Shown: positions 5,426-26,840 of the stretch, piece after piece | How the letters are laid out: each line of letters starts with the position of its first letter | How positions within the stretch are numbered: position 1 is the stretch's first letter | From: an uncultured Mucilaginibacter sp. | GTDB lineage: Bacteria; Bacteroidota; Bacteroidia; Sphingobacteriales; Sphingobacteriaceae | Direction of reading: 5' to 3' | Length of the DNA: 36,260 bases | Assembly (NCBI GenBank): GCA_903915155.1 | Contig: CAIWRU010000065.1 | Span: forward strand, 1-36,260 | Notes under the pieces: generated by a model | What the model was told of the DNA's origin: nothing | Database searches by the model: none | Seen by the model: only the letters and a program-made list of their open reading frames with translations | Made by a program: the position numbers and the translations under genes

Positions 5426-7417
5426 CTACACCATATGCTCCAGCGTTACGGGGTCAATCCTTTTTAGCGCTATATTACTTACGGGTTTTACCACTAACGG
5501 TATTTTTTCTACGTACGTTTCGCTGGTATCAAGACCGAAGGTTTTGGCTTCGGAAAGCGCCAGCTTTTTTATGCTGAAATAGCTGTTCAGGATAAATGAT
5601 TCTGATATGCTGAACAGGTTGTTGTATGACAGGAATTTTTCCAAAATAACAAACTTGAAATCAGAGACCACCTTGAATTGCCTTAATGAAGGATAGGTGC
5701 TAATGATGCTCAACTCGCCGCGGCTCACCATATCCTCAACCACTTTGCGGAACAACACATTTACGCGCGGCTGTATGCGGAAACCTAATCGTAAATCAAC
5801 ACGGATGATCTTGCCTTCTTCAATATGATCCACACTGTACTCCATGGTATACGGTTCATCCGTAGTATCAATATGAATGAACCAGTACGTATCCGCCCGT
5901 TTAGGGCTTCGGCTCATGATCGAGTAAACGATCTTTTCTTCTATCTGCTTGCTATTGTTGGCTTTGGTCAGATAGATCAATTGGCTTGAATATTTAGGTA
6001 TGGTTTGATCGGCACTTAACGCATTCAGCATAGGTATCTGATCTTTCAGATCCACAAAATGCAAAAAGCGGTTATTGATCTTACGTGCCTTGAACCATAT
6101 ATACATGGTGAATATCAACCCGACCTCGAATACTACAAAGAACAAGCGTTTAAGCAGTTTAATCGCGTTAGCTACAAAGAAGGTAAACTCTACGCATAAA
6201 AACACACACAGGATAATAGTAACCAGCCATACAGGCCAATGCTTAACATAGCGCATAAAGTAGTACATGAGTATGGTGGTCATGAGCATGGCTATGGTAA
6301 TGGAGAAACCGTAAGCCGCTGTCATGTGTTCAGATGTTTGGAAGTAAAGCGTTACCGCAACGCAACCAAAACACAGCAGCCAGTTAATGCTGGGGATATA
6401 GATTTGCCCGCGGATGTTTGATGGATATTTTATGGTAATGCGCGGCCAAAAATTCATACTCACCGCCTCGCTTATGAGCGTAAATGAACCGCTTATGAGC
6501 GCCTGGCTGGCTATAATGGTTGCAAGGGTTGCAAGGGCCACGCAGGGTATCATAAATAGATGAGGCAAAGGCACTATTTGATAGAACGGGTTAATACCAA
6601 CAAATTTGGTGCCTGCGGGTTGCATTAAAACCCATGCACCCTGGCCCAAATAATTAAGCACCAGGGCCGTTTTAACAAATATCCAGCTCTTCTGGATGTT
6701 TTTACGGCCGCAATGACCAAGGTCGGAGTACAAAGCTTCGGCGCCTGTAGTACATAAAAACACCGCGCCCAATAATATTAAGATGTGAGGATTACCCACC
6801 AATAACCTATAACCATAATATGGACTCAGGGCTTTAAATATTTCAGGGTAGTGTGCTATTTGCATGCCGCCTAAAACGGCTATCATGATGAACCATATCA
6901 ACATTACCGGGCCGAACGCGGAGCCAACTACCTTCGTTCCAAACTGCTGGAAGAAGAAAAGCAGCAATATAATGCCAATAACAATACCAATGATAAGCCA
7001 GCTACCGGGTACAAATGAGGAAGCCAAAGACGGTACGTTGTTCAGGCCCTCAATTGCCGAGGTAACAGAGATGGGTGGGGTAATAATACCATCGGCCAAT
7101 AAAGTGCCTGCACCAATTATGGCCGGAATGGCCAACCATTTGCCATAGCGGCGAACAAGGGCATAGAGCGAAAAAATACCACCTTCGCCTTTGTTATCGG
7201 CCTGTAAGGTGATGACGATGTATTTGAAGGTAGTTTGCAGGGTAAGTGTCCAGAATATACAGGATATGGAACCTAAAACCAGTGTTTCGTTAACTGTTCC
7301 TCCCTCCGTTACAAGGGTTTGGAAAACATAAAGCGGAGACGTGCCAATATCGCCGAAGATAATACCAAGCGTTATCAGCAGCCCTGCGGCTGTGACTTTT
7401 TTTAAATGGGGATTCAT
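5426..7417 (-). CDS. kup: KUP/HAK/KT family potassium uptake protein
   Basis: N-terminus LGIIFGDIGTSPLYVFQTL and DNKGEGGIFSLYALVRRYG are Kup signatures; about 12 hydrophobic segments. Confidence 0.93.
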   Translation of the reverse strand: MNPHLKKVTAAGLLITLGIIFGDIGTSPLYVFQTLVTEGGTVNETLVLGSISCIFWTLTLQTTFKYIVITLQADNKGEGGIFSLYALVRRYGKWLAIPAIIGAGTLLADGIITPPISVTSAIEGLNNVPSLASSFVPGSWLIIGIVIGIILLLFFFQQFGTKVVGSAFGPVMLIWFIMIAVLGGMQIAHYPEIFKALSPYYGYRLLVGNPHILILLGAVFLCTTGAEALYSDLGHCGRKNIQKSWIFVKTALVLNYLGQGAWVLMQPAGTKFVGINPFYQIVPLPHLFMIPCVALATLATIIASQALISGSFTLISEAVSMNFWPRITIKYPSNIRGQIYIPSINWLLCFGCVAVTLYFQTSEHMTAAYGFSITIAMLMTTILMYYFMRYVKHWPVWLVTIILCVFLCVEFTFFVANAIKLLKRLFFVVFEVGLIFTMYIWFKARKINNRFLHFVDLKDQIPMLNALSADQTIPKYSSQLIYLTKANNSKQIEEKIVYSIMSRSPKRADTYWFIHIDTTDEPYTMEYSVDHIEEGKIIRVDLRLGFRIQPRVNVLFRKVVEDMVSRGELSIISTYPSLRQFKVVSDFKFVILEKFLSYNNLFSISESFILNSYFSIKKLALSEAKTFGLDTSETYVEKIPLVVKPVSNIALKRIDPVTLEHMV

Positions 7418-7469: not shown

Positions 7470-8711
7470 TCATTGTGTATTGTTTATATCAAGTGTAAAA
7501 TAAAAACGACTGCCTTCGCCGGCTCCGCTCTCAACGCCTATGTGGCCGCCCTGCGCCTCAATAAAATCCTTAGCAATGGCAAGGCCCAGGCCTGTGCCCG
7601 TTTTATCAGCATCGGCACCTGGTATGCGGAAATAGCGTTCAAAAATGCGGGCTACATACTTTTCGTCAATGCCCTGGCCAGTGTCCTTCACCGAAAACTC
7701 GATCGCGTTGCCTTGTTTTTTTACATTCAGGTTGACAGTGGCCTTTTCAGGGCTGTATTTTACCGCGTTTGATAACAGGTTGATCAGCACCCAGGTAGTT
7801 TTATCAAGATCGGCCATTACATGGGGCAGTGAATCCGGACAGTCGACCGCTATTGTTATCTCTTTCTGGTCGGCTAACGAGCGGATAGCCTTTACGGCAT
7901 AGTTAACAATATTTTTTGGGTGCGTATTGCCAAAATTCAGGTTTATTTTGCCTGTTTCAACCTGTGCGGTATCCAGCAGTTCGGCGGTTATCTGTAGCAG
8001 CCTATGGGTATCGGCATCAATATTTTGCAGCAATTGTTTTTGTTCGTTGTTTACTCCCCCAACACGCTCGTCTTCCAACAATTTAAGGCTCATGCGAATA
8101 GATGAAAGCGGCGTTTTCAGTTCATGCGAAATGGTTGCTATAAAGGTTGTTTTTGCATCATTCAACTGTTGCAGGTCGGTTATATTTTTAAGGATTATCA
8201 CTTTACCTATCACCTTGTAATCATTAGTAACTTCCAGCACATCCTTGGTAAAATAGCTTTCGCGGCCATCAGCAAAAATTTTCATTCTGCTTTGCTCAAC
8301 AAACAGCATATTGCGCAGCAGGTCGTTTTCCAATGCTATGTTTGGCGCGTATTGGCCTGTAAGCTTTTCTTCGGGCATACCTATAAGGGTACAGGCTACC
8401 TTGTTGGCAAAAATAATAAATTGTTTATCATCAATACCAATAATACCATCGGTCATTGAGTTAATGATGGTTTCAATCCTGCGTTTTTCAAAAAGTATGC
8501 TGGCCAGGTTGCTGTGCTCGTACTCATCAAGCTTGGCGGCCATTTGGTTAAAGGCATCGGCAAGGTCGCCAAATTCATCTTTAGCCGGGAAAACCAGGCG
8601 TTTGTTATAGTTTTTGTTCGATATTTCCTTTATGCCCTGCATCAGCTCCTTAACAGGGTTGGCAATGTAACCGGGGAAGTTTACCACAAAGCTAAAGGCT
8701 ATTAAAAACAC
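7470..8711 (-). pseudogene. C-terminal part (TM2-HAMP-PAS-HisKA-HATPase) of a frameshifted sensor histidine kinase
   Basis: NPVKELMQGIKEISNKNYNKRL (HAMP), TIINSMTDGIIGIDD (PAS), FIATISHELKTPLSSIRMSL (H box), DTGQGIDEKYVARIFERYFR and GTGLGLAIAKDF (G boxes). It starts at a weak GTG inside a TM helix and continues the upstream ORF in the -1 frame. Confidence 0.8.
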
Positions 8712-9181
8712 AGTGAACCAATAAGCGATACAATAATTATAGCGCCGTCGGCAGTGCCCGCTGCCACACTATTCTTGTGCTCAATAGCCGTCATGTTAAG
8801 CTGAATTATTTTGTACAGCAACCCGCGTATCTTAACGCTTTGTTCACTTATGGCCTGTGGGTCGGATAACCGTTTATAGGTTTCAAACGCCGAACGCAAT
8901 GAATCGGCTAACGGCCCTTCGCCGGGTTCGGTAATATTGTGTTCTTCCTGGTAAATATTCTTATCGATCGTCTGCATTTTTGTTGCAGTCGCTACTGTTT
9001 TTGGGTAATCAAGCGCCTGCTCAATATTTTTAGCATATACCAGTGTACGGTAATTATCCTTCAATATCGCTTTTGAATCGTTGGATAAACGGGTTAAATA
9101 ATAATCAGCTAACCCAGAACTGATGAGGGCCATCAGGAAAAGGAAACCGATGCCTAAACGGAGTTTGTTTTTTATGTTCAT
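8702..9181 (-). pseudogene. N-terminal part (TM1, periplasmic four-helix-bundle-like domain, start of TM2) of the same histidine kinase
   Basis: MNIKNKLRLGIGFLFLMALISSGLADYYLTRL...; ends ...IIIVSLIGSLCF* at a TAA in a T5 run. Shifting -1 continues the TM as LIAFSFVVNFPGYIANPVKEL. Confidence 0.78.
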
Positions 9182-10470: not shown

Positions 10471-10782
10471 TTACTTCATTTCATCCAATGCTACGTTCAA
10501 TTTTAAAACATTAACCTTTGGCGGCCCGAATAATCCCAATAAAGGCTGTTCGGTATTTTCAGCTACAAGGTTCGAAATTTTATCGGCAGGTATGTTTCTC
10601 ACTTTTGCGATACGTGCTACCTGTATTTGTGCCCCGGCCGGTGACAGGTCGGGGTCTAAGCCACTACCCGATGCGGTAACCAGTTCGGCAGGTATCTGCG
10701 CGCGGGTTACACCAGGGTTGTGCTTTAAGAAAACATTGATCAGCGAATCCACATTTTTTAAATAATCAGGGGTGATATTTTA
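10471..10782 (-). pseudogene. kdpC: Truncated kdpC (3' half only)
   Basis: NITPDYLKNVDSLINVFLKHNPGVTRAQIPAELVTASGSGLDPDLSPAGAQIQVARIAKVRNIP matches the KdpC C-terminal half (VTASGSGLDP). Two in-frame stops (TGA TAA) lie immediately upstream; the TM and N-terminal half are absent. Confidence 0.85.
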
Positions 10783-10973
10783 TCATAAGCAGTATCGATA
10801 GTGTCCTGTATTTTTTTCTGAATTTCACGATCAGTAACATCAGCAATGTACACATTTATAAATCCCTGCCGCGCCAATAAACTAAGTGAAAAAAGTTCTT
10901 TATTGTCAAAATCGAATGATTTATTTATGAAATATTGAGTGTCAATAAAAAGGTTTCGGCATACTAAATCCAT
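10758..10973 (-). pseudogene. Truncated PIN-like (possibly DUF4935-type) ORF, 5' fragment
   Basis: 71-aa ORF MDLVCRNLFIDTQYFINKSFDFDNKELFSLSLL... resembles the PIN N-terminal pattern (FIDT..). It ends by running out of frame into kdpC sequence. Confidence 0.5.
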
Positions 10974-11207: not shown

Positions 11208-11219
11208 GCATTGACTGGG

Positions 11220-11292
<73 letters not shown>

Positions 11293-11436
11293 CTGTTTTG
11301 TTGTTATTACTTCTCGCTCATAACTGCGAAAAGTGTGCCAATTAAACCAAAAATGCAATTTACATCCCGTTTAAATTGGACTGCAAAGATATAATTCGTT
11401 TCTTTGCAGTCCAAATATTATTTGATTTATTTTTAT

Positions 11437-12312
11437 ATGGCCCACAAAGCAGGTTTTGTAAGCATTATTGGTAAACCGAACGCAGGTAAATCAACCCTGA
11501 TGAATGCGCTTGTGGGCGAAAAAATGTCCATCATTACCCCCAAGGCGCAAACTACGCGTCACCGTATTTTAGGCATTGTTAACGAGGATGATTACCAGAT
11601 AGTTTTTTCTGACACGCCCGGTGTGATAAAACCACACTACGCGTTGCACGAAAGCATGATGCACCAGGTTGATGGCTCGATAGTAGACGCCGACCTGATA
11701 CTGCTGGTAACCGATATATATGAAGAGTTTGACGAAGCCGACGTACTAAAAAAACTCGAAGGTTCATTAGCGCCCGTTGCGGTTCTCATCAATAAGGTTG
11801 ACCAAAGTGATGAGGAAACGGTTAAGGCCAAGGTTGAATTTTGGAAAGAAAAGTTAAACCCTAAGGCGATTTTCGCTATATCGGCACTGAAGGATTATAA
11901 TGTGTTGGCCGTAATGAATTTTGTTATTGAGCATTTGCCCGAGCATCCGCCGTATTATGAAAAAGATGCGCTGACTGATCGTAATGACCGGTTCTTCGCT
12001 TCGGAAATGATACGTGCGCAAATACTTAAACAATATAAAAAAGAAATACCATACAGTGCCGAGGTTATTGTGACGGCGTTTGTTGAGGGCGAAAAGTTAC
12101 ACCGCATCAGCGCCGAAATTATCGTAGAGCGCGATTCACAAAAAAATATAATAATTGGCGAAGGCGGTAAAATGCTTAAAATAGTAGGCACCTACGCCCG
12201 CCGCGACATGGAAGACTTTTTCCAGAAAAAAGTATTTTTGGAGATGTTTGTTAAGGTAATACCCGACTGGCGCAGCAAAAAGAATTACCTGAAGAAATTT
12301 GGGTACGAATAG
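11437..12312 (+). CDS. era: GTPase Era
   Basis: GKPNAGKSTLMNALVGEKMSIITPKAQTTRHRILGI, DTPGVIKPHYALHESM, NKVDQ, and KH-domain motif IIVERDSQKNIIIGEGGKMLK. Confidence 0.96.
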   Translation: MAHKAGFVSIIGKPNAGKSTLMNALVGEKMSIITPKAQTTRHRILGIVNEDDYQIVFSDTPGVIKPHYALHESMMHQVDGSIVDADLILLVTDIYEEFDEADVLKKLEGSLAPVAVLINKVDQSDEETVKAKVEFWKEKLNPKAIFAISALKDYNVLAVMNFVIEHLPEHPPYYEKDALTDRNDRFFASEMIRAQILKQYKKEIPYSAEVIVTAFVEGEKLHRISAEIIVERDSQKNIIIGEGGKMLKIVGTYARRDMEDFFQKKVFLEMFVKVIPDWRSKKNYLKKFGYE

Positions 12313-12330
12313 TAGCAAGTACAAAGTAGT

Positions 12331-12430
12331 AAGTCTTGAGTCCAAAGTCAATTCTTATTACGTTAAACAAAAATTTGTCGTGAGTTGTATTGACTACAGA
12401 CTCAAGACTACAGACTTAAGACTTAAGACT
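12331..12430. repeat. Intergenic imperfect inverted repeat between era and der
   Basis: aagtcttgagtccaaagtcaat versus ttgactacagactcaagact...; core gtcttgagtc/gactcaagac is reverse complementary. Confidence 0.7.
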
Positions 12431-12435
12431 TAAAC

Positions 12436-13737
12436 ATGAGTAACATAGTAGCCATAGTGGGCAGGCCCAACGTAGGCAAATCGACCTTATATAACCGCTT
12501 AACCGAAAGCCGCAAGGCCATAGTTGATGACTTTAGCGGCGTAACGCGCGACAGGCATTATGGCATATCGGAATGGACCGGCCATAGCTTTACTGTTATT
12601 GATACCGGCGGCTATGTGGCCAACTCGGAAGATGTATTTGAAGCCGCCATCCGCGAACAGGTAATTATTGCCATTGAAGAAGCCACCGTAATTTTATTTA
12701 TGGTTGATGTTACTACCGGCATTACCGATCTTGACGATGAAATTGCCACACTTTTGCGTAAAGGGAAAAAGCCTGTTTTTGTGGTGGTGAACAAGCTTGA
12801 TAACACTTCATTGTTAGCCGACTCGATGGTATTTTACAGTTTGGGACTGGGTGAGTTGTACAACATATCGTCAATGACCGGCTCGGGAACGGGTGAGTTG
12901 CTTGATGAGGTGGTTAAGCATTTTGATGATGAGCCAACCGAACCCAATACATTGCCAAAATACGCCATTGTGGGCAGGCCAAATGTGGGTAAATCATCCA
13001 TCATTAACTCGCTGATAGGTAAGGAAAGAAATATAGTTACCCCTATTGCCGGTACTACGCGCGATTCCATCCACATACACTACAACCAGTATGGCCATGA
13101 TTTTATGCTGATTGATACAGCCGGGATGCGCAAAAAAACCAAGGTGAAGGAGAACATCGAGTTTTACTCGGTAATGCGTACCATTAAAGCCCTGGAAGAA
13201 GCCGATGTGGTTATCCTGATGATAGATGCCGTTGAAGGCATTGAATCGCAGGATATCAATATTTTTCACCTTGCCGAAAAGAACAAGAAAGGCATTGTTA
13301 TTGTGGTTAATAAGTGGGACCTGATTGAAAAAAATAACAAAACCATAAAGGTTTTTGAAGATATGATACGCCAAAAGATAGCGCCGTTTACCGATGTGCC
13401 TATCGTATTTACTTCGGTTACCGAAAAACAACGCGTGTTAAAGGTGATTGAAACTGCAAACGAAGTTTACGCCAACCGCGCGAAACGTATCCCAACCTCA
13501 AAACTGAACGAGGTGCTGTTGCCGATCATTGAGGCTATGCCACCGCCATCCATCAAAGGCAAATACGTTAAGATAAAATACATTACCCAAATTGCAGGCA
13601 CATCGCCCATGTTTGCGTTCTTTTGCAATTTGCCGCAATACGTTAAGGAACCTTACTATCGCTTTGTTGAGAATAAGCTGCGCGAAAACTTTGACTTTAC
13701 CGGCGCACCGGTACAGATATGGTTCAGGCAGAAATAA
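12436..13737 (+). CDS. der: Ribosome biogenesis GTPase Der (EngA)
   Basis: Two tandem GTPase domains: [31 protein letters not shown] and [34 protein letters not shown]-terminal KH-like region. Confidence 0.97.
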
Positions 13738-13739
13738 TA

Positions 13740-13851
13740 GGAGCCAGGATTTGAAGGATTTTTTTGGATTTACAGGATATATAAACAGGCTTAATTGAAG
13801 GCAGTATAAACCACATCCTGAAAATCTCTTTAATCCGTTAAATCCTAGTTC
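13740..13851. repeat. Intergenic imperfect inverted repeat, family A copy 2
   Basis: ggagccaggatttgaaggatttttttggatttacaggat ... atcctgaaaatctctttaatccgttaaatcctagttc; lies between the convergent stops of der and the S41 peptidase gene. Confidence 0.8.
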
Positions 13852-15441
13852 TTACTTCACCGCAGCAATCGCTTTCTTAAAGCCCACGTCATCGTCATTT
13901 ATGGCTTGATAATATGCCTGGTCGCCCCATTTAAAACGGGCTGCGTATGCCTTTATAAATGTTTTTATGGGCTGCCGCGATAGGGCTATATCATTCGAAT
14001 CCATTTCTTTTATCGTACCCGATGCGTATTGAATAAAGTCACCGAAAGTATCTTCACTTACCTGGTACTGCTTAACAAAATCATCAGCCGAGGCATATTT
14101 GCTTATGATGGGTTGCAGCTGATCTATCACAAAAGCGGTAAACAGCAGGTTATCATTCAGTTGCTGAACTAAATTAGTATCCTCAGCGGTATCGGCAGGT
14201 ACAAAAATATCGGGCATAATGCCCCCGTGACTATAAACTGCTTTCCCACTTAGCGTATGATAAGGCGATTGCTTTTTGAAAATGCTGTCGTTCAGGTTAC
14301 TTTGCTCCGAAAATAGCTCTCCCTTGTTCATTCTTGCATTCAGTTCGTTATGATAATTTTCAACACCGCCTGCATATGATTTTTGTATTGATCTGCCCGA
14401 TGGCGTGTAATACCTTGCCACGGTTAAATTCACGGCAGATTTATCGGGGAACGAGAATTGCTCCTGTACTAAACCCTTACCAAACGAACGGCGGCCAATA
14501 ATAACGGCCCTGTCCAAATCCTGCAAAGCGCCGGCCAGTATCTCACTCGCCGAGGCGGAATATTCATCTATCAGCACAGCTAGTTTTCCCTGTTGAAATT
14601 CGCCGGAGTCGGACGCAAAATAATCCGTACGAGGTTCATGTACACCCTTGGTATAAACTATCAGCTGGCCTTTCGTTAAAAACTCATCGGCCAGCGCGGT
14701 AGCTGTGTTCAAATAGCCGCCGCCATTACCACGTATGTCCAAAACAAGCTTTTTCATGCCCTGCTGTTTCAGGCTTGCCAGGGCATCGCGAAAATCGTTA
14801 TCGGTGGTGGAAGCAAACTTGCTTATTTTTATATAACCTATGTTTGGCGCCGCTATATAAGAAGCATCAATGCTGCTCATATCCACATAGCCGCGTTTAA
14901 ATGTAAAAACTTTTGTTCCGGTAATATCAGGGCCCGAAACTGTAAACGTAAGCGAGTTATCTTTAGCGGATGTAAAAACCTTATCTACCCGCTGAACCGT
15001 AAGCCCTGTACCCGAAAAACTTTTGTTGTTAACATAAAGTATGCGATCACCGCTCACCAGGCCTGCCTTAGCCGCGGGGCTATCGCTATAAACCTGTGTA
15101 ATAAAAAGGGTATCGCGTAATAATTGGTATTCAATGCCATCAAAGCCGCCTTCCAGTTTTTCATTTATGGCCTGTGCCTGTTTCGGCGGCAAGTACATGG
15201 AATGCGGGTCGAGGTTTTGCAGCAGGTTGTTAGCGGCCACCCCCTCCACGCTGTCGACATTTACCGAATCGACGTACTTTTGCCTTACCAGTTGTAAAAC
15301 CTTTGCTATTTTATCGTTATTGCCTTGTGAAAATCCAATTCCCTGGTCAAAAAAATGTCCGTTGGCCATGATCAACCCAAGGGTTATGCCAAACAAAATC
15401 AATATTACCGACCTGAAAATTATGCCCGCCGTCTTTTTCAT
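13852..15441 (-). CDS. S41 family C-terminal processing peptidase (PDZ domain)
   Basis: N-terminal TM; VRQKYVDSVNVDSV; PDZ-like DSPAAKAGLVSGDRIL; catalytic region LVLDIRGNGGGYLNTA, DEYSASASEILAGALQDLDRAVIIGRRSFGKGLVQ. Confidence 0.93.
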   Translation of the reverse strand: MKKTAGIIFRSVILILFGITLGLIMANGHFFDQGIGFSQGNNDKIAKVLQLVRQKYVDSVNVDSVEGVAANNLLQNLDPHSMYLPPKQAQAINEKLEGGFDGIEYQLLRDTLFITQVYSDSPAAKAGLVSGDRILYVNNKSFSGTGLTVQRVDKVFTSAKDNSLTFTVSGPDITGTKVFTFKRGYVDMSSIDASYIAAPNIGYIKISKFASTTDNDFRDALASLKQQGMKKLVLDIRGNGGGYLNTATALADEFLTKGQLIVYTKGVHEPRTDYFASDSGEFQQGKLAVLIDEYSASASEILAGALQDLDRAVIIGRRSFGKGLVQEQFSFPDKSAVNLTVARYYTPSGRSIQKSYAGGVENYHNELNARMNKGELFSEQSNLNDSIFKKQSPYHTLSGKAVYSHGGIMPDIFVPADTAEDTNLVQQLNDNLLFTAFVIDQLQPIISKYASADDFVKQYQVSEDTFGDFIQYASGTIKEMDSNDIALSRQPIKTFIKAYAARFKWGDQAYYQAINDDDVGFKKAIAAVK

Positions 15442-15654
15442 ACACTATCTACACAAAGTTAATAATTTGGGTTGAGTTTTTGACCGCGCTATGGCTCAAA
15501 CATTTACGTGACAGTAAATTTTACAAAAGTTTAACTGCAAAGCATTCGGATTAGCCCCGGTTTTCCGTTCCCGGGCATTTTTAGAGAAATAAAAATCCAA
15601 AAAAACGCATAATCTGTTACATCTTGTTTAATTTTGCGACATAATTCAACGCTG

Positions 15655-16470
15655 ATGGAATTTACCACCGAAAAAAGCTCGTACTACAACAACCTGGAAA
15701 AAATGCCGGTTGCGGAAATACTGGAGCATATGAACGCCGAGGACCAAACCGTGCCGCTCGCAGTTGCAAAGGCCTTGCCGCAAATTGAAAAGTTGGTGAC
15801 CATAACCGCCGAAAAAATGAAACAAGGCGGCAGGCTATTCTATATTGGCGCGGGTACCAGCGGCAGGCTGGGTGTGGTGGATGCATCGGAATGCCCGCCA
15901 ACGTTTGGTGTGCCTGCCGATTGGGTGGTAGGTATTATAGCCGGGGGTGATGTGGCTATACGTAAATCGGTTGAAAATGCTGAAGATGATCCGCAGCAAG
16001 CATGGCAGGACCTACTTGCCTATAACATTAGTGATAAAGATGTGCTGGTAGGCATAGCGGCATCGGGCACTACGCCTTATGTTATCGGCGGGTTGCAAAT
16101 GGCCACCGCGCACAATATTACCACGGGCTGTATCGTGTGTAATAGTGGCAGCCCCGTTGCCGCTGAGGCTAAATACCCGGTTGAAGTAATTACCGGCCCG
16201 GAATTTTTAACAGGATCGACCCGTATGAAGGCTGGTACCGCGCAAAAGCTGGTGTTGAATATGTTGAGTACGGCTACTATGATACAACTGGGCCGCGTAA
16301 AAGGCAATAAGATGGTTGATATGCAACTGAGCAACATCAAACTGGTTGCCCGTGGCACCCGCATGGTGATGACTGAAATCGGTGTCGACGAACAGACCGC
16401 CACCGACTTATTAAAACAGGAAGGCAGTGTAAGAAAGGCTGTAGAATTTTATAATTTAAACAAAAATTAA
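15655..16470 (+). CDS. murQ: N-acetylmuramic acid 6-phosphate etherase
   Basis: GGRLFYIGAGTSGRLGVVDASECPPTFGVP, GIAASGTTPYVIGGL and EVITGPEFLTGSTRMKAGTAQKLVLNMLST are MurQ signatures. Start chosen at 15655. Confidence 0.95.
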   Translation: MEFTTEKSSYYNNLEKMPVAEILEHMNAEDQTVPLAVAKALPQIEKLVTITAEKMKQGGRLFYIGAGTSGRLGVVDASECPPTFGVPADWVVGIIAGGDVAIRKSVENAEDDPQQAWQDLLAYNISDKDVLVGIAASGTTPYVIGGLQMATAHNITTGCIVCNSGSPVAAEAKYPVEVITGPEFLTGSTRMKAGTAQKLVLNMLSTATMIQLGRVKGNKMVDMQLSNIKLVARGTRMVMTEIGVDEQTATDLLKQEGSVRKAVEFYNLNKN

Positions 16471-16503
16471 AAGTCGCTAAATTTTGACTTTTGAATTAAA
16501 CAA

Positions 16504-17070
16504 ATGCACGAAATAGAACCATATTACCGCTGGAGGGATGACTATGTAGCATCGGAGGACGAATTTTCGCCGTTCTATGCTACACAGTACAACGAGTTTG
16601 AGTTTGATAAGCAGATATACAACTATTTACTGCATCCGCAATGGGATTCGTTTGGCTCGAATACCTTATACCTTAAGGTACTGTACGTTGATTATGACCG
16701 CTCATACACCATTATTGAGCTGATAGGCGAATGGAACGATGCTATTAACAACGATATTATGCTAATGAAGCGCGAACTGTTAGACCTGATGGTTGACCAG
16801 GGCATCAGTTATTTTATACTGATAGGCGAAAATGTGCTCAACTTTCATGCTTCGGACGATTGCTATTATGAAGAGTGGTTCCAGGATATTGACGACGGGT
16901 GGATAGCCGGTGTAAATTTCAGGGACCATGTGATAGATGAGTTTAAACGGAATAACATCGATTACTATATAAACTTTGGCGGCGAACTTGATGATGTGAA
17001 CTGGCGGGCGCTAAAACCCTTGCAGGTATTTAAGAAAGTTGAAGAACAACTGACAAAACGGCTGAATTGA
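16504..17070 (+). CDS. Hypothetical acidic protein (188 aa)
   Basis: Intact ORF with typical codon usage, 33 bp after murQ. Rich in D/E/Y; no recognised domain. Confidence 0.75.
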   Translation: MHEIEPYYRWRDDYVASEDEFSPFYATQYNEFEFDKQIYNYLLHPQWDSFGSNTLYLKVLYVDYDRSYTIIELIGEWNDAINNDIMLMKRELLDLMVDQGISYFILIGENVLNFHASDDCYYEEWFQDIDDGWIAGVNFRDHVIDEFKRNNIDYYINFGGELDDVNWRALKPLQVFKKVEEQLTKRLN

Positions 17071-17133
17071 TCATCGGTACAGGATTTGATATTAAACTAT
17101 TGCTATAAGTTTGTATCAAACTAAGCGTTATGA

Positions 17134-17159
17134 TTGTAATACAGTAAATCATAAATTTG
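17134..17159 (+). promoter_or_regulatory. Candidate Bacteroidetes promoter (TTG ... TAnnTTTG) for the BI-1 family gene
   Basis: TAAATTTG at 17152-17159 matches the -7 consensus TAnnTTTG. The upstream TTG spacing is shorter than consensus. Confidence 0.35.
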
Positions 17160-17196
17160 TATAACTAAAAACGAAAAAAATAAATTTTAATAAAAA

Positions 17197-17931
17197 ATGG
17201 AAAGTAATAACCCCAATTACGTTTACGACAGCGTAGTACAATTAGACGACAGCGCAACAGCATCGCGTAAGTACTTAGCCAAAGTTTTTGCATGGATGTT
17301 TGCCGCATTAGGAATTTCAGCGTTTGTTGCATTTGAATTCTTTCTTACCCCAAGCTTAATGAGTTTAATAATTGACCCTGTTAGGGGTGGATTTACAGGC
17401 TTAGGTTATGTGGCAATATTTGCACCTGTAGTTTTCTCATTAGTAGCCAATTTTGGATATACCAGGGTGTCATATCCTGTTATGGTTGTATTGTTCATAG
17501 CTTATGCAGCAACAATAGGCGTAAGTCTTAGTGTTTTAGGGCTTATTTATACAGGCGCTTCAATATTCAGTATGTTTTTAACATCTGCATTATTATTTGG
17601 TATCATGTCTGTTGCTGGTTATACCACAAATACCGACCTGACAAAAATGGGTTCGATTCTTATTATGATATTTATAGGTGCATTTGTTGCAAGTCTTGTA
17701 AATTTCTTTATTGGCAGCAGCCAATTACAGTATATCATAAGCTTCGTTTTTGTAGCTGTACTTATCGGGCTTACAGCATATTATATACAAATGCTGAAAA
17801 GGATCGGAGCCGGTATTGAATACGGAAGCGCTGAATCAAAAAAACTGGTTATAATAGGCGCGTTCGTACTTTATACAACATTCATCAACTTATTTATGTC
17901 GATGATGCGTTTATTCGGCAGAAGAAGATAA
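17197..17931 (+). CDS. Bax inhibitor-1/YccA family membrane protein
   Basis: Seven hydrophobic segments; YLAKVFAWMFAALGISAFVAF near the N-terminus, GAFVLYTTFINLFMSMMRLFGRRR at the C-terminus. Confidence 0.92.
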   Translation: MESNNPNYVYDSVVQLDDSATASRKYLAKVFAWMFAALGISAFVAFEFFLTPSLMSLIIDPVRGGFTGLGYVAIFAPVVFSLVANFGYTRVSYPVMVVLFIAYAATIGVSLSVLGLIYTGASIFSMFLTSALLFGIMSVAGYTTNTDLTKMGSILIMIFIGAFVASLVNFFIGSSQLQYIISFVFVAVLIGLTAYYIQMLKRIGAGIEYGSAESKKLVIIGAFVLYTTFINLFMSMMRLFGRRR

Positions 17932-17954
17932 TCGTTAAACAAATTATTCAAAAA

Positions 17955-17983
17955 AGCTGCCTTAAAAAAAGGCGGCTTTTTTT
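17955..17983 (+). terminator. Rho-independent terminator after the BI-1 family gene
   Basis: agctgcctt-aaaa-aaaggcggcttttttt hairpin with T run. Confidence 0.85.
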
Positions 17984-18070
17984 ATGTACAAAAAATCGAA
18001 ATGACACAAGGGTTATATGAGGATAAGAAGCGCTATTGCATATTACAACAATATTGCGCACATTTGCACT

Positions 18071-18180
18071 GCTTATAGAGAAAGACGGAGGGATTAGACC
18101 CTGCGATGTCTTAGCAACCTGTGCTTCACAAGGTGCTACATTCTACTTAGCCCGTTCAAAAAGGGTTAAGACAGATAAGC
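18071..18180 (+). ncRNA. SAM riboswitch (SAM-I / S-box) upstream of metH
   Basis: gcttatagagaaagacggagggattagaccctgcgatgtcttagcaacctgtgcttcacaaggtgctacattct...gataagc. S-box core (GGAGGGA..GACCCTGCGATG..TTAGCAACC..GGTGCTAcaTTC) and closing P1 gcttat/ataagc. Confidence 0.93.
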
Positions 18181-18225
18181 GAAAGTCAGATAAACACCCG
18201 ACTTTTCGACATAAGCGTATTTTTT

Positions 18226-18339
18226 AGTAGCAAGTAGTTAGTATCAAGTAGCAAGACAACTTTGTCTATTCTATTTGATTCCAACTAAACCAGGCGCTAA
18301 TTTTTAGTACTTGATACTTGATACTAACTACTTGATACT
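18226..18339. repeat. Imperfect inverted repeat (family C) in the metH leader
   Basis: agtagcaagtagttagtatcaagt (18226-) versus acttgatactaactacttgatact (18316-18339): 22 of 24 reverse-complementary positions. The right arm is identical to 36213-36236. Confidence 0.85.
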
Positions 18340-18346
18340 GTTCCAA

Positions 18347-21300
18347 ATGGATATTAGAAAAGAATTAGAAAAACGCATCCTGGTTATCGACGGGGCAATG
18401 GGCACCATGATACAGCGGTACCAGCTTACCGAGGCCGATTTCCGTGGCGAGCGTTTTCGTGACCATGCTTCCGACCTGCAGGGGAATAACGACCTGTTGA
18501 ATATCACCCGCCCGGATGTGATACGGGCCATCCATGCCGAATATTTGGATGCCGGGGCTGATATTATTGAGACTAATACCTTCAGTACACAAGTAATATC
18601 GCTTGCCGATTACCATTTGCAGGAACTTGCTTATGAATTGAGCTATGAAAGTGCGCGCATTGCCCGCGAGGTTGCCGATGAATACACCAAAAAAAATCCA
18701 TCAAAACCGCGCTTTGTGGCGGGTGCCGTTGGGCCGACAAACCGTACTGCTTCCCTGTCGCCTGATGTGAACGACCCGGGTTATCGTGCCGTTACTTTTG
18801 ACGATCTGGCCGAAGCTTATTACACGCAGGTCCGCGGTTTGGTTGATGGCGGCTCTGATCTTTTATTAGTTGAAACCATATTTGATACCCTGAATGCCAA
18901 AGCGGCATTATTCGCTATACAGCGTTATAAAGATGAGTGCGCGGCTGCCGGAAAAGATTATGCGCCATTCCGTGGCGAGGGTGCTATCATGATATCGGGT
19001 ACTATAACCGATGCATCTGGTCGTACCTTATCGGGGCAAACGGTTGAAGCTTTCTGGAACTCTATCCGCCATGCTAATTTGTTATCGGTTGGTTTGAATT
19101 GCGCTTTGGGTGCTAAGGAAATGCGCCCGCACTTGGAGGAGCTTTCAACAATCGCTAATGCCTATATATCGGCTTACCCTAACGCGGGATTACCAAATGA
19201 GTTTGGTCAGTACGACGAAACCGCGCATGAAACCGCACACCAGGTTGATGACTTTATGAAAGCCGGGTTGGTGAATATAGTGGGTGGTTGTTGCGGCACT
19301 ACGCCAGAGCATATTAAATGTATTGCCGATAAAGCTGCCAAATATCCCGCAAGGAAAAAACCGGAAATAGCACCTTACATGCGCTTAAGCGGGTTGGAAG
19401 CGGTTACGCTTACGCCTGAAAGTGTTTTTATGAATGTGGGCGAGCGTACCAATATTACCGGCTCGCCAAAGTTCTCGAAGCTGATATTGGGCGAAGATTA
19501 CGAGGCTGCGCTTACCGTTGCCCGCCAGCAGGTGGAAGGCGGTGCGCAGGTGATCGACATTAACATGGACGAGGGCATGATCGACTCGGAAGCGGTGATG
19601 GTTAAATTCCTGAACCTGGTGGCTTCTGAACCTGATATTGCCAAGCTGCCCATAATGGTCGATTCGTCCAAATGGACGGTTATTGAAGCCGGACTGAAAT
19701 GTTTGCAGGGAAAGGGTATTGTAAACTCCATATCGCTGAAAGAAGGCGAAGAGAAATTTAAAGAATCGGCGCACAAGATATTAAGCTACGGTGCTGCCAC
19801 TGTGGTGATGGCTTTTGACGAAACTGGCCAGGCCGATTCATTAGCGCGAAGGATAGAGATCTGCCAGCGTTCGTATGACATATTGGTTAACGAAGTGGGT
19901 TTCCCACCGCAGGATATTATTTTCGACCCGAATATTTTAACCGTTGCCACCGGGCTTGAGGAACACAACAACTATGCGGTAGACTTTATTGAAGCCACCC
20001 GCTGGATAAAACAAAACCTGCCTTATGCTAAAGTTAGCGGCGGGGTAAGTAATATTTCGTTCTCGTTTAGGGGTAATAATACGGTGCGCGAGGCGATGCA
20101 CTCAGCTTTCCTTTATCACGCTATAAAGGCCGGGATGGACATGGGTATTGTTAATGCCGGAATGCTCGAGGTTTACCAGGAAATACCAAAAGACCTGCTG
20201 GAACTGGTTGAAGATGTACTGTTAAACCGCCGCCCCGATGCTACCGAGCGATTGGTTGAATTTGCCGACACCATAAAATCCAAAGGAAAAGAAATAGTGC
20301 GCGATGAAGAATGGCGCAAAAACCCGGTTGAAGAGCGCTTATCGCATTCATTGGTTAAGGGTATTATTGAGTATTTGGATGCCGACGTGGAAGAAGCTCG
20401 CCAGAAATACGCCAAACCGCTGGAAGTAATTGAAGGCCCGCTGATGGACGGCATGAACATCGTAGGCGATCTGTTTGGGTCGGGTAAAATGTTTTTGCCA
20501 CAGGTGGTAAAATCGGCCCGTGTAATGAAAAAGGCGGTGGCTTACCTGCTGCCATTCATCGAACTGGAAAAACAACGTGTACTGGCATCGGGTGAAGATA
20601 CTGCTGCTGATGCCCGCGCCAATGCCGGTAAAATTTTAATGGCCACAGTTAAGGGCGACGTACATGATATTGGTAAAAACATTGTAGGCGTTGTATTGGC
20701 CTGTAATAACTTCGAGGTTATTGACCTTGGGGTGATGGTGCCTGCACAACGCATAATTGATGAAGCTATTAAGCAGGAAGTGGATATTATCGGCCTCAGC
20801 GGTTTGATAACGCCATCGCTTGATGAAATGGTTCATTTTGCCAAAGAGATGGAGCGCCAGAACTTTACTATTCCGCTTATTATTGGCGGGGCTACTACAT
20901 CGCGCATACATGCTGCAGTGAAAGTCGCGCCCAATTATTCGGGGCCTGCTATACATGTTTTGGATGCATCGCGCAGTGTGACGGTTTGCAGTAATTTGAT
21001 GAGCGAAACCGGCAGGGACGAATACATAAAAGGCATAAAAGACGAGTACGAAAAAGCGCGCGAAGCGCATTTGAATAAAAAATCGGACAAGCGTTTTGTG
21101 AGTATTGATAATGCGCGCGATTCAAGGTTTAAGATCAACCTGAACGGTATGATGCCGCCTAAGCCGACCTTTACCGGCACAAAGATTTTTGAGGCGTTTC
21201 CGCTGGATGAGTTGGTGCCATATATTGACTGGACACCGTTCTTCCATACCTGGGAACTGCGCGGCAGCTTCCCGAAAATATTTGATGATAAGTTTGTAGG

Positions 21301-22069
21301 TGTTGAGGCGAAGAAACTGTATGATGATGCGCAGGCATTATTGAAGAAAATTGTGGATGAAAAACTGTTACAGGCGAATGCAGTTATTGGCTTTTGGCCT
21401 GCCAACAGTATTGGTGATGACATTGAATTATATACCGATGAATCACGCACGCAGGTTTTGGAAACCATTTATACCCTTCGCCAGCAGGTCGAAAAGGTTA
21501 AGGGCGAACCTTATTACGCCTTGTCGGACTTCATCGCTCCAAAAGATAGCGGGATAGCCGATTACTGGGGTGGTTTCGCGGTTACTACCGGTATAGGCTG
21601 TGATGAGTTGGTTGCCGAGTTTGAAAAGGACCATGACGATTACAACAGCATTATGGCCAAAGCCCTTGCCGATCGCCTTGCTGAAGCCTTTGCCGAAAAA
21701 ATGCACGAGTTGGTGCGCAAGGATTTCTGGGGTTATGCTAAAACTGAAGCACTGGATACCGTTGAGCTAATAAAAGAAGAATACCAGGGCATACGCCCGG
21801 CACCGGGTTATCCCGCGTGTCCGGATCATACGGAGAAAATAACCTTATTTGAATTGCTGAAAGCCGAAGATAACGCCCACATGCACCTTACCGAAAGCCT
21901 GGCCATGACACCGGCTGCATCGGTAAGCGGGTTTTACTTTGCTCATCCACAGTCGAGGTATTTTGGATTAGGGAAAATTAGTAAGGACCAAGTAGAGGAT
22001 TATGCAAGGCGGAAAGCGATGAGCGTTGATACAGTAGAAAGATGGCTGGGGCCGAATCTTAATTATTAG
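18347..22069 (+). CDS. metH: Cobalamin-dependent methionine synthase
   Basis: [29 protein letters not shown], pterin-binding [15 protein letters not shown], cobalamin-binding [31 protein letters not shown], activation domain [15 protein letters not shown]. The track start (18311) is a TTG inside the repeat; ATG 18347 preferred. Confidence 0.96.
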
Positions 22070-22157
22070 CCCCCCAGCCCCCTAAAGGGGGAGTTATTAA
22101 ACAGAATTATATAAATTTAACCAATCAAAAATTCCCCCTTTAGGGGGTTAGGGGGCT
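22068..22157. repeat. C/G-block inverted repeat, family B, filling the metH-metF gap
   Basis: agccccccagccccctaaagggggag ... ttccccctttagggggttagggggct; overlaps the metH TAG and ends one base before the metF ATG. Confidence 0.85.
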
Positions 22158-22158
22158 A

Positions 22159-23115
22159 ATGAAAATCACCGAACATATCGCCAATGCCAAGGGAAAGACA
22201 CTATTCTCTTTCGAACTTATCCCACCATTAAAAGGCCAGAGTATCCAAGGCATTTATGATGCAATTGATCCGCTGATGGAATTCAAACCGCCCTTTATTG
22301 ATGTAACCTCATTGCGCGAGGATTTTATTTATAAGGAGCATGAGAATGGTTTGCTAGAGAAGTTAAGCTACCGTAAACGGCCGGGTACTATCGCCATTTG
22401 CGCTGCAATTATGAATAAATATGGTGTTGATACGGTGCCACACCTGTTATGCGGAGGCTTTACGAAGGATGAAACCGAGAACGGCCTTGTCGACCTGCAA
22501 TTTTTGGGCATTGAGAATGTATTAGTTCTGCGTGGCGATGCACGGCGTGGCGATACTTCGTTTGTACCTACGCCAAACGGCCATTGCTATGCTACCGATC
22601 TGTTGGAACAGGTGGTAAATATGAACAACGGTATCTACCTGCATGAACATAACGACGCCAGCCTTAAAACTGATTTTTGTATAGGCATTGCGGGCTATCC
22701 CGAAAAGCATTTCGAGGCGCCGAATATGAAATCTGATTTCAAATACCTGAAGCAAAAGGTTGATATGGGGGCCAAATTCATCGTTACCCAAATGTTTTTC
22801 GATAACCAGAAGTATTTTGATTTTGTGAATACCTGTCGCGCAAATGGTATTGATGTGCCCATTATACCGGGGCTTAAACCTGTCACTGGCTCAAAGCAAT
22901 TGGTTAACCTGTCAAAAACGTTCCATATCGATATGCCCGATGACTTGACCGATGCCATAACTGCCTGCAAAACCGAAAAGGATGTAAGGGATGTGGGTAT
23001 TGAGTGGACGATAAACCAGTGCAGGGAGCTAATAAAATTTGGTGTGCCGGTGCTGCATTTTTATACCATGAGTAATGCCGGGCCTACGAAAAGGATAGCT
23101 GAGGCGATATTTTAG
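22159..23115 (+). CDS. metF: 5,10-methylenetetrahydrofolate reductase
   Basis: FSFELIPPLKGQ, DVTSLRE, LCGGFTKDETENGLVDLQFLGIENVLVLRGD, AKFIVTQMFFDNQKYFDFV, PIIPGLKPVT. Confidence 0.95.
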   Translation: MKITEHIANAKGKTLFSFELIPPLKGQSIQGIYDAIDPLMEFKPPFIDVTSLREDFIYKEHENGLLEKLSYRKRPGTIAICAAIMNKYGVDTVPHLLCGGFTKDETENGLVDLQFLGIENVLVLRGDARRGDTSFVPTPNGHCYATDLLEQVVNMNNGIYLHEHNDASLKTDFCIGIAGYPEKHFEAPNMKSDFKYLKQKVDMGAKFIVTQMFFDNQKYFDFVNTCRANGIDVPIIPGLKPVTGSKQLVNLSKTFHIDMPDDLTDAITACKTEKDVRDVGIEWTINQCRELIKFGVPVLHFYTMSNAGPTKRIAEAIF

Positions 23116-23207: not shown

Positions 23208-24002
23208 ATGGACTTACAACTAAAAGATAAAATAGCATTAGTAACCGGGTCGACCGCAGGTATTGGTTACGCCATTGCCAAAAGCCTGGCTGCGGAAGGT
23301 GCAAGGGTAATAGTTAACGGGCGTACCAAAGAACGCGTTGACGCGGCTATTGAAAGCATTAAATCGGCAACAGGTAATAACCAGGTTACCGGCGCAATTG
23401 CCGATTTTTCTGTACCTGAACAGATCGCAAACCTTATTAACCAGATACCCGAAGTTGATATTTTAATTAACAACGTTGCCATATTCGAGCCTAAGGCATT
23501 CGATGATATTCCCGACGAAGACTGGTTGAAATTTTATGAAGTGAATGTATTGAGCGGTGTGCGATTATCGCGGGCTTATTTTAGTAAGATGCTGGCGAAG
23601 AACTGGGGTCGTATTATATTTATATCAAGCGAGTCGGCGGTTCAGATACCCTCCGAAATGATCCATTATGGCATGACAAAAAGCGCGCAATTAGCTATTT
23701 CGCGCGGTTTGGCCGAGCTTACCAAAGGCACCAATGTAACCGTAAACTCGGTATTGCCGGGGCCTACATTATCAGAAGGTGTTGGCGGATTCATTGATCA
23801 GCTGGCGAAAGACCAAAATAAAACGGTGGAGCAGATAGAAGAAGACTTTTTCAAAACCATGCGCCCTACATCCATTATCCAGCGCTTTTTAACACCTGAT
23901 GAAGTGGCTAATATGGTAACCTATTTGGCAAGCCCGCTGGCTTCGGCTACCAATGGTGCAGCGATACGTGCCGAGGGCGGTTTGCTGAAAACGATGCTAT
24001 AA
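23208..24002 (+). CDS. SDR family NAD(P)-dependent oxidoreductase
   Basis: LVTGSTAGIGYAIAKSLAAEGARVIVNGR (TGxxxGIG), DILINNVAIFE (NNxA variant), SS...YGMTKSAQ (S-YxxxK). Confidence 0.93.
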   Translation: MDLQLKDKIALVTGSTAGIGYAIAKSLAAEGARVIVNGRTKERVDAAIESIKSATGNNQVTGAIADFSVPEQIANLINQIPEVDILINNVAIFEPKAFDDIPDEDWLKFYEVNVLSGVRLSRAYFSKMLAKNWGRIIFISSESAVQIPSEMIHYGMTKSAQLAISRGLAELTKGTNVTVNSVLPGPTLSEGVGGFIDQLAKDQNKTVEQIEEDFFKTMRPTSIIQRFLTPDEVANMVTYLASPLASATNGAAIRAEGGLLKTML

Positions 24003-24016
24003 TGCTGGCAGATAGC

Positions 24017-25363
24017 TTACTCCAAACCGTATTCTTTCAATTTACGGTATAAAGTAGCAATGCCAATATTTAACAGCCTTGCCGCTTCGGCGCGGTTACC
24101 TGCGGTATGGTTCAGCACGCGTTGGATGTGGAGTTTTTCAACTGATGCCAGGTCGAATGCCGAAAGGTTGCCAGACGCTTTAGGCAATGCTGCATCAAAT
24201 TCATAAGGCAACAACGAGGCATAAAGCTCGTTGCTGTCGCAAAGGATAACCGCGCGTTCAATAATATTCTTTAGCTCGCGCACATTGCCCGGCCAGTCAT
24301 AGGCTTCCAGTTTTTCTAAAAAATCCGGGGTGAAGCCTGTTATATGCGCATTGACTTTGGTAGCAAAATGGTGCACAAACATTTTGGCCAGCAAGCCAAT
24401 GTCTTTCTTCCTGTCGCGCAATGCGGGCAGCGTAACCTGGAAAACCGACAAGCGGTAAAACAGGTCGGAGCGGAAATGATCCTGGGCTACTTCGTCCTGC
24501 AGATTGCGGTTTGTGGCAGCTAATATGCGTACACTTACTTTGGTAGTTTTGGTATCGCCTATTTTTATAAACTGCTGCGATTCAAGCACCCGCAATAATT
24601 TGGCCTGCAGGTCATGATCAAGTTCACCAATTTCATCCAAAAAGATAGTGCCGCCGTTGGCTTCTTCAAATAAGCCTTTTTTATCTTTCACTGCGCCGGT
24701 AAACGCGCCGGCTTTGTGGCCAAACAACTCGCTTTCCAAAAGTTCTTTGCTAAAGGCACTGCAATTAATAGCTACAAACGGTTTTGCATTGCGCGGGCTG
24801 GCCTGGTGGATAGCTTCGGCAAAAACCTCTTTGCCAGTGCCTGTTTCGCCCAAAATAAGTACGGTGGTATCGGTAGTGGCTACGCGCTGGGCCAGTTTAA
24901 TAGCGGCAGTAATGGCCGGTGAAGTGCCTATGATACGGTCGAACCCGAATTTACTGCTTAGCTTATTTTCCAGTTCGAGGACACGCCGCTGCAAAACTGC
25001 CTTGTCCATGGCCTTGTTTACCAGCGGAATTATTTTTTCGTTGTCATCACCCTTGGTTATATAATCGAAGGCGCCGTTTTTTATGGCAGTTACACCATCG
25101 TTAATGGTGCCGTATGCCGTTAGTACAATAATTTCAATGGCGGGATAAGCGGCCTTGATGGTTTTGGTTAGGTCGATGCCGTTACCGTCGGGGAGTTTTA
25201 CGTCGCTTATCACTACATCAACCACTTCATGTTCTAGCCTTCGCAGGCCATCTTTCGCGGTTGAGGCTTCCAGTACGTCAAAATCTTCCAGCTGTAAAAT
25301 ACGTGCAAGCAGTTTGCGCAAACGCTCCTCATCATCAATAACCAATAATTTACCTTTCGACAT
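24017..25363 (-). CDS. Sigma-54-dependent response regulator (REC-AAA+-Fis HTH)
   Basis: REC domain LLVIDDEERLRKLL, VISDVKLPDGNG; AAA+ ILGETGTGKEVFAEAIH and ELFGHKAGAFTGA (GAFTGA loop); Fis-type HTH NRAEAARLLNIGIATLYRKLKEYGLE. Confidence 0.96.
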   Translation of the reverse strand: MSKGKLLVIDDEERLRKLLARILQLEDFDVLEASTAKDGLRRLEHEVVDVVISDVKLPDGNGIDLTKTIKAAYPAIEIIVLTAYGTINDGVTAIKNGAFDYITKGDDNEKIIPLVNKAMDKAVLQRRVLELENKLSSKFGFDRIIGTSPAITAAIKLAQRVATTDTTVLILGETGTGKEVFAEAIHQASPRNAKPFVAINCSAFSKELLESELFGHKAGAFTGAVKDKKGLFEEANGGTIFLDEIGELDHDLQAKLLRVLESQQFIKIGDTKTTKVSVRILAATNRNLQDEVAQDHFRSDLFYRLSVFQVTLPALRDRKKDIGLLAKMFVHHFATKVNAHITGFTPDFLEKLEAYDWPGNVRELKNIIERAVILCDSNELYASLLPYEFDAALPKASGNLSAFDLASVEKLHIQRVLNHTAGNRAEAARLLNIGIATLYRKLKEYGLE

Positions 25364-25496
25364 GGTAACAGATTTTGTGCAAATGTGAGAATTTATTCGG
25401 GGATTGGAAATTGTTTAGTTAAACACCCGACAAACATTCCTAGTTCATCGCCCACATCATCAAAATTTCACATTAATATTTGCATCTTGCAGGTAA

Positions 25497-26840
25497 ATGC
25501 CTGCGTTAAAATTTCCGCTCAGAAAACAAATAGCTTATGCCTGCGGCATGATAGGTTGGAGCATGATGTCCAACCTTATTATTGTAATGTTGCCTTACTT
25601 TTATTTGCCGCCCAATAATTCTGGGTTAGTCCCACTTATACCACAGTTAATATTGTTCGGGGTAATAAATATTATGTCAATTATTTTAATATCGGGGCGG
25701 TTTGTGGATGCGGTTTTTGATCCAATAGTCGCTTCATTTAGTGACCGGAGCCAAAACCCTAAAGGCCGCCGCATCCCGTTTATGAAATGGGCCATTTTAC
25801 CCGCGGTATTTTTTTGCTGTCTTACATTTTTCCCCCCGGTAAGAGGAGAAAGTACACTCAATGCTATATGGCTGGGTTGCACAATGGTGCTATTTTTTAT
25901 GAGCTTTACTGCTTATATTATTCCATACAACGCGCTATTGCCCGAATTAACCGAAACCGCGGATGAAAAAGTAAAGTTATCATCATTTCAGCAGGTGGGT
26001 TTTGTTTTGGGGATGGTAATCGCCGGGCTGGTTAATAATTATGCCGATTTGGTGCAGCGCTTTTTTCATGTTACCAGTCGCGATACAGCGGTACAATATA
26101 CCATTGGCGGCTTAAGTGTTTTTGCGGGGATAGTAATGCTGATACCTGTGCTGTATATTAACGAAAAGAAATATTCAACTAGCAAACCCTCGCATTTGCC
26201 ATTGTTGCCGGCCATACGCAAAACCTTTAGTAACCGTAATTTTAAGTATTACCTTATTTCGGATTTTTCGTTCTATATGGCGCTGAGCATCATATCAAGC
26301 GGGTTACTGTATTTTGTAACGGTGCTGCTTCACCTGCCCGAATCAGAGGGTGGGCCATTGCTGGGCGTGATGGTGGTAGTGTCGCTCATGTTTTACCCGC
26401 TTATTAATTATTTGTCGAGAAAGATCGGCAAAAAGCCTATCGTATTGTTTTCGTTCGGTGTGCTTAGCCTGGTGTTTGTGGCTTTTTATTTTTTGGGAAA
26501 GTTCCCCATATCAGCACATGCCCAAATTTATACGCTGCTTATCGCAGCCAGTTTCCCGCTGGCAGCTTTGGGGATTTTGCCTAACGCTATACTCGCCGAA
26601 ATTGCGCAGGACGATGCCATAAAAACAAAGGAAAACCGTGAAGGGATGTTCTTTGCGGTAAAATACCTATTTGTAAAATTAGGGCAAACGCTGGGCATAG
26701 CCTTGTTTGCCTTCTTAACTATTTACGGAAAAGACCCGGGCAATGATTACGGCCTGCGCCTGAATGGCGCATGTGGCTTTGTACTTTGCGCACTGGCAAT
26801 GCTATTCTTCAGCCGCTTTACGGAAAGAGGTAGAAAGTAA
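25497..26840 (+). CDS. MFS / GPH (glycoside-pentoside-hexuronide:cation symporter) family transporter
   Basis: QIAYACGMIGWSMMSNL, GRFVDAVFDPIVASFSDRSQNPKGRRIPFMKW (GPH-like), about 12 TM segments. Confidence 0.88.
   Translation: MPALKFPLRKQIAYACGMIGWSMMSNLIIVMLPYFYLPPNNSGLVPLIPQLILFGVINIMSIILISGRFVDAVFDPIVASFSDRSQNPKGRRIPFMKWAILPAVFFCCLTFFPPVRGESTLNAIWLGCTMVLFFMSFTAYIIPYNALLPELTETADEKVKLSSFQQVGFVLGMVIAGLVNNYADLVQRFFHVTSRDTAVQYTIGGLSVFAGIVMLIPVLYINEKKYSTSKPSHLPLLPAIRKTFSNRNFKYYLISDFSFYMALSIISSGLLYFVTVLLHLPESEGGPLLGVMVVVSLMFYPLINYLSRKIGKKPIVLFSFGVLSLVFVAFYFLGKFPISAHAQIYTLLIAASFPLAALGILPNAILAEIAQDDAIKTKENREGMFFAVKYLFVKLGQTLGIALFAFLTIYGKDPGNDYGLRLNGACGFVLCALAMLFFSRFTERGRK

What the first reader, a model, noticed from the sequence alone, without database searches (positions are those of the whole stretch)
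10471..10973. Deletion-like junction: 5' half of a PIN-like gene joined to the 3' half of kdpC; kdpFAB absent
On the minus strand a 71-aa PIN-like ORF runs into recognisable KdpC C-terminal sequence (NITPDYLKNVDSLINVFLKHNPGVTRAQIPAELVTASGSGLDP...) with stops TGA TAA just upstream in the kdpC frame. The KdpC TM and N-terminal half and all of kdpA/kdpB are missing, while kdpD follows directly. Both genes are on one strand and truncated at the same point (about 10770-10785), as expected from a single deletion that removed the PIN 3' end through the kdpC 5' half.
Basis: partly seen in the sequence, partly recalled or inferred. Interest (0 to 1): 0.72.

Follow-up and report, generated by a model that had tools for sequence, protein, structure and literature searches.

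The report
Potassium pump operon lost by rearrangement
In this Mucilaginibacter genome a chromosomal rearrangement has destroyed the genes of the Kdp potassium pump, leaving half of kdpC fused to the front of an unrelated nuclease-like gene; it is an ordinary case of gene loss, although it leaves the bacterium with only one recognisable potassium importer.

Summary
The minus strand carries the first 67 codons of a PIN_12 gene, joined at 10773/10770 to the last 98 codons of kdpC. kdpA and the kdpC 5' half are absent from the whole assembly, and no protein passes the kdpB cut-off. The interpretation as one simple deletion is only partly right. In the nearest relatives the kdp locus reads RR–kdpA–kdpB–kdpC–kdpD–HK–kup, with a small gap that can hold kdpF. 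The tRNA-Met–era–der–…–metH–metF block lies elsewhere, 595 kb away in one complete genome. In the window that block, with the PIN fragment at one end and an SDR gene at the other, sits where kdpFAB should be; the kdp response regulator is still present at 24017-25363. So a 13-kb block was relocated into the kdp locus and kdpFAB was lost, in one event or two. Secondary decay is visible: the neighbouring histidine-kinase gene has a one-base frameshift that relatives lack. kdpD, the response regulator and kup remain open. No TrkH/KtrB-type or second Kup protein was found, so Kup may be the only K+ importer. Verdict: real, lineage-specific gene loss by rearrangement; ordinary, low novelty. Read mapping could not be checked.

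The parts
10761..10973 (-). 5' fragment (71 codons, 67 homologous) of a PIN_12-type gene; GC 30.5% against 44% for the window
   Evidence: Pfam PIN_12 1-56/172; 48% identity to an intact G163 PIN gene; GC
10770..10773 (-). Junction 1: end of PIN homology / start of kdpC homology, at most 3 nt ambiguous
   Evidence: DNA and protein alignment to relatives
10474..10770 (-). kdpC 3' half (98 codons); N-terminal membrane half missing
   Evidence: Pfam KdpC 86-182, E=2.6e-35; only kdpC match in the genome
9178..10305 (-). kdpD, short Bacteroidota form (KdpD sensor domain, no kinase domain), intact
   Evidence: Pfam KdpD E=5e-91; 91% identity to nearest relatives
7470..9181 (-). Kdp-associated histidine kinase, split by a 1-nt frameshift at about 8702-8707 (ORFs 8702-9181 and 7470-8711)
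   Evidence: Relatives read TGTTTTTTA, window TGTTTTTA; one open frame, nearly full length, in 81 of 92 loci, most of the others being partial matches
5426..7417 (-). kup K+ transporter, intact, the only Kup match in the assembly
   Evidence: Pfam K_trans; genome search
24017..25363 (-). Sigma-54 response regulator that precedes kdpA in relatives; marks the other flank of the lost genes
   Evidence: 90% identity to the regulator in the kdp loci of G104 and G165; Pfam
11218..23115 (+). Relocated block: tRNA-Met (11218-11292, minus), era, der, S41 protease (minus), SIS-domain sugar phosphate protein (murQ-like), two further genes, metH, metF
   Evidence: Contiguous and unlinked to kdp in G104, G103, G095, G164, G072
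23208..24002 (+). SDR-family gene between metF and the response regulator; its stop is 14 bp from the regulator's stop (junction 2 region)
   Evidence: Not found after metF or beside the regulator in relatives; Pfam

Best explanation
This is a degenerate kdp locus. A block carrying an accessory PIN gene, tRNA-Met, era, der … metH, metF and an SDR gene was moved by illegitimate recombination into the region between the kdp response regulator and kdpC. kdpF, kdpA, kdpB and the 5' half of kdpC, together with the 3' end of the PIN gene, were lost in that event or in a later deletion. The kdpC remnant lacks its membrane half and has no partner subunits, so no Kdp pump can form. The event is recent relative to the species split, and regulatory decay has begun with the kinase frameshift. 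Shown: both fragments, the junction, absence of kdpAB, and the relatives' gene orders. Inferred: that the block moved rather than the kdp flanks, the order of steps, and loss of function.
For: Nearest relatives have RR–kdpA–kdpB–kdpC–kdpD–HK–kup on one strand. Their era–metF block is elsewhere (in complete G072 kdpD is at 5.093 Mb and era at 5.690 Mb). In the window the regulator and kdpC keep order and orientation, with the block between them. kdpA is present in 114 of 119 good-quality genus genomes but not here. There is no kdpA, no kdpB over cut-off and one truncated kdpC. PIN and kdpC homologies meet within 3 nt. The remnant's dN/dS of about 0.12 is still like intact kdpC (0.08-0.13), as expected if the loss is recent. 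The kinase frameshift was seen in no other locus compared.
Against: No intermediate genome was found, so relocation and deletion cannot be ordered. The assembly is a draft (222 contigs) and no reads were available. The kinase frameshift lies in a T run and could be a sequencing error. A closer relative with an intact locus is not held; synonymous divergence of kdpC and kdpD from the nearest ones is already 0.8-1.7.
Confidence: 0.8

Rival explanations
1. One reading: one deletion removed the PIN 3' end, kdpFAB and the kdpC 5' half from a genome in which PIN and kdpF were already neighbours.
For: Both genes lie on one strand and are truncated at one point without long microhomology. Junction 1 by itself looks exactly like this.
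Against: No relative has PIN, tRNA-Met or era next to kdp. The window also shows a second novel adjacency, SDR–response regulator. An earlier relocation would be needed, so this can only be the second step of two.
Confidence: 0.35
2. Assembly chimera: C65 wrongly joins unrelated pieces.
For: Draft assembly; reads unavailable.
Against: Both flanks of the missing segment (regulator and kdpC) are on the contig in the right order and orientation, so two independent misjoins would be needed. The lost parts (kdpA, kdpB, kdpC N-terminus) are on no other contig of a 99.68%-complete assembly. There is no shared repeat at the junction.
Confidence: 0.1
3. The short kdpC is an intact gene with a reduced function.
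For: Its dN/dS is about 0.12, and an ORF with a GTG start exists.
Against: The N-terminal membrane half and kdpA/kdpB are missing. Relatives have full-length kdpC. The low dN/dS is explained by the shared history before truncation.
Confidence: 0.03

Closest known systems
kdpFABC–kdpD–HK loci of Mucilaginibacter (e.g. strain X5P1, L088; M. xinganensis MAG, L089)
   Same: kdpD, kinase, kup and response regulator homologous (72-91% identity) and in the same relative order and strand
   Different: The window lacks kdpF, kdpA, kdpB and the kdpC 5' half, has the era–metF block in their place, and has a frameshifted kinase
kdpA and kdpE pseudogenes in Francisella tularensis (PMC6584805)
   Same: Broken kdp genes in one lineage while relatives keep them
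   Different: There by pseudogenes; here by rearrangement with complete loss of kdpA and kdpB
PIN_12 domain proteins (Pfam PF16289)
   Same: N-terminal third homologous
   Different: Two thirds of the domain and the rest of the protein are missing

Membership tests
KdpC (PF02669) | Sequence match to the family over its cut-off | tested here: met
   122 bits against cut-off 24.1
KdpC (PF02669) | Full-length protein including the N-terminal membrane part | tested here: not met
   Profile positions 1-84 absent here and elsewhere in the genome
Kdp pump (KdpFABC) | kdpA and kdpB present | tested here: not met
   No kdpA match; no kdpB over cut-off
PIN_12 (PF16289) | Complete PIN domain over the curated cut-off | tested here: not met
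   22.2 bits against 32; positions 1-56 of 172
KdpD sensor family (PF02702) | KdpD domain complete | tested here: met
   Positions 1-210 of 210, E=5e-91
Integrative element at tRNA-Met | Direct repeat of the tRNA 3' end and an integrase | tested here: not met
   No second copy of the tRNA 3' end (14-20 nt) in the window; no integrase seen among the genes around the junctions

The most novel reading that the evidence does not exclude
After loss of the Kdp pump, the orphaned kdpD and sigma-54 regulator (and possibly the kinase, if its frameshift is a sequencing error) persist as the K+/osmotic control of kup, which would be the cell's only K+ importer.
Probability: 0.12. Interest if true: 0.45.

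Novelty: new member of a known kind. Interest (0 to 1): 0.2.

Why it matters
It is a clean, lineage-specific loss of a pump that nearly all good-quality genomes of the genus keep, and it leaves a genome with Kup as the only K+ importer found (no KdpA, no TrkH/KtrB, no second Kup). That makes a simple test of whether Kup alone supports growth at low K+ and of what the orphan KdpD and regulator do. Otherwise it is ordinary genome decay.

Tried and rejected
Insertion of a mobile element at tRNA-Met: no att-like repeat, and no integrase seen near the junctions. Phage or plasmid origin of the PIN gene: no plasmid match and one weak phage match. PIN 3' end elsewhere in the genome: the only other PIN_12 gene (contig C31) is a different full-length gene. 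Relaxed selection on the remnants: dN/dS gives no clear signal. G142 as a second kdpFAB loss: its kdpD lies at a contig end, so uninformative. Literature search for kdp loss in Mucilaginibacter found nothing relevant.

Full report
Observation. On the minus strand, 10761-10973 encodes 71 codons, of which 67 match the start of a PIN_12 gene (48% identity to an intact 427-codon gene in G163). It stops in a TAA that overlaps the kdpC frame. The kdpC frame is homologous to KdpC from 10770 down to 10474, profile positions 86-182. Alignment with six intact kdpC genes places the start of kdpC homology at CCTGATTATTTA (10770), and PIN homology ends at 10773. There is therefore at most a 3-nt overlap, without long microhomology.

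Genome-wide. The window is the whole contig C65 of a 222-contig, 99.68%-complete assembly. KdpA has no match. The kdpB model finds only weak matches to other P-type ATPases. KdpC is found once, truncated. In the genus (Mucilaginibacter, by the record titles of the relatives) kdpA is present in 114 of 119 good-quality genomes, so the absence is unusual but not unique. TrkH/KtrB is absent and Kup is found once, against two copies in each of three relatives.

Relatives. The nearest loci (G104 = strain X5P1, G165, G072; kdpD about 91% identical in G104 and G165) read response regulator – short gap (which can hold kdpF) – kdpA – kdpB – kdpC – kdpD – histidine kinase – kup on one strand. More than 50 loci hold kdpA, kdpB and kdpC together with kdpD at full length. 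A number of loci are cut by contig ends, and L161 has 10 kb upstream of kdpD without kdpABC. The block tRNA-Met–era–der–S41–SIS gene–two genes–metH–metF is contiguous in G104, G103, G095, G164 and G072, and is not adjacent to kdp (in G072 595 kb apart). In the window this block, extended by the PIN fragment and an SDR gene, occupies the place of kdpFAB. The regulator's 90%-identical orthologue is at 24017-25363, 14 bp from the SDR stop.

Interpretation. A single deletion explains junction 1 but not the presence of the block between regulator and kdpC. A relocation is needed, with kdpFAB lost in the same event or afterwards. I cannot order the steps, because no intermediate is held. A chimera would need two independent misjoins that happen to restore the order and orientation of the kdp flanks, plus absence of the lost genes from all other contigs; I consider it unlikely, but reads were not available.

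Consequences. KdpC without its membrane half and without KdpA/KdpB cannot make a pump (inference from the known architecture of KdpFABC). The neighbouring kinase has a one-base loss in a T run that splits it into two ORFs; 81 of 92 loci carry it in one nearly full-length frame, and most of the others are partial matches or cut. The remnant kdpC still has dN/dS of about 0.12, like intact copies, so the loss is recent or the signal is mostly pre-loss history. kdpD, the regulator and kup are open. Broken kdp genes in one lineage have a precedent in Francisella, where kdpA and kdpE are pseudogenes in some strains (PMC6584805).

Verdict. Real, lineage-specific, explained by rearrangement and gene loss. 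Low novelty.

Noticed in passing
8702-8711: One-base frameshift in a T run splits the Kdp-associated histidine kinase; relatives have a single frame. Could be decay or a sequencing error.
   Followed up: partly
25364-25497: The MFS gene beside the response regulator lies about 20 kb from it in G104 and G072, so a further deletion or insertion separates the lineages here.
   Followed up: no
5426-7417: Kup appears to be the only K+ importer found in the assembly: no KdpA, no TrkH/KtrB, no second Kup.
   Followed up: partly
22065-22160 and 18220-18340: Interspersed palindromic repeats with many copies in congeners.
   Followed up: no
23208-24002: SDR gene without a syntenic match in relatives; nearest copies are about 68-70% identical at unrelated loci.
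   Followed up: no
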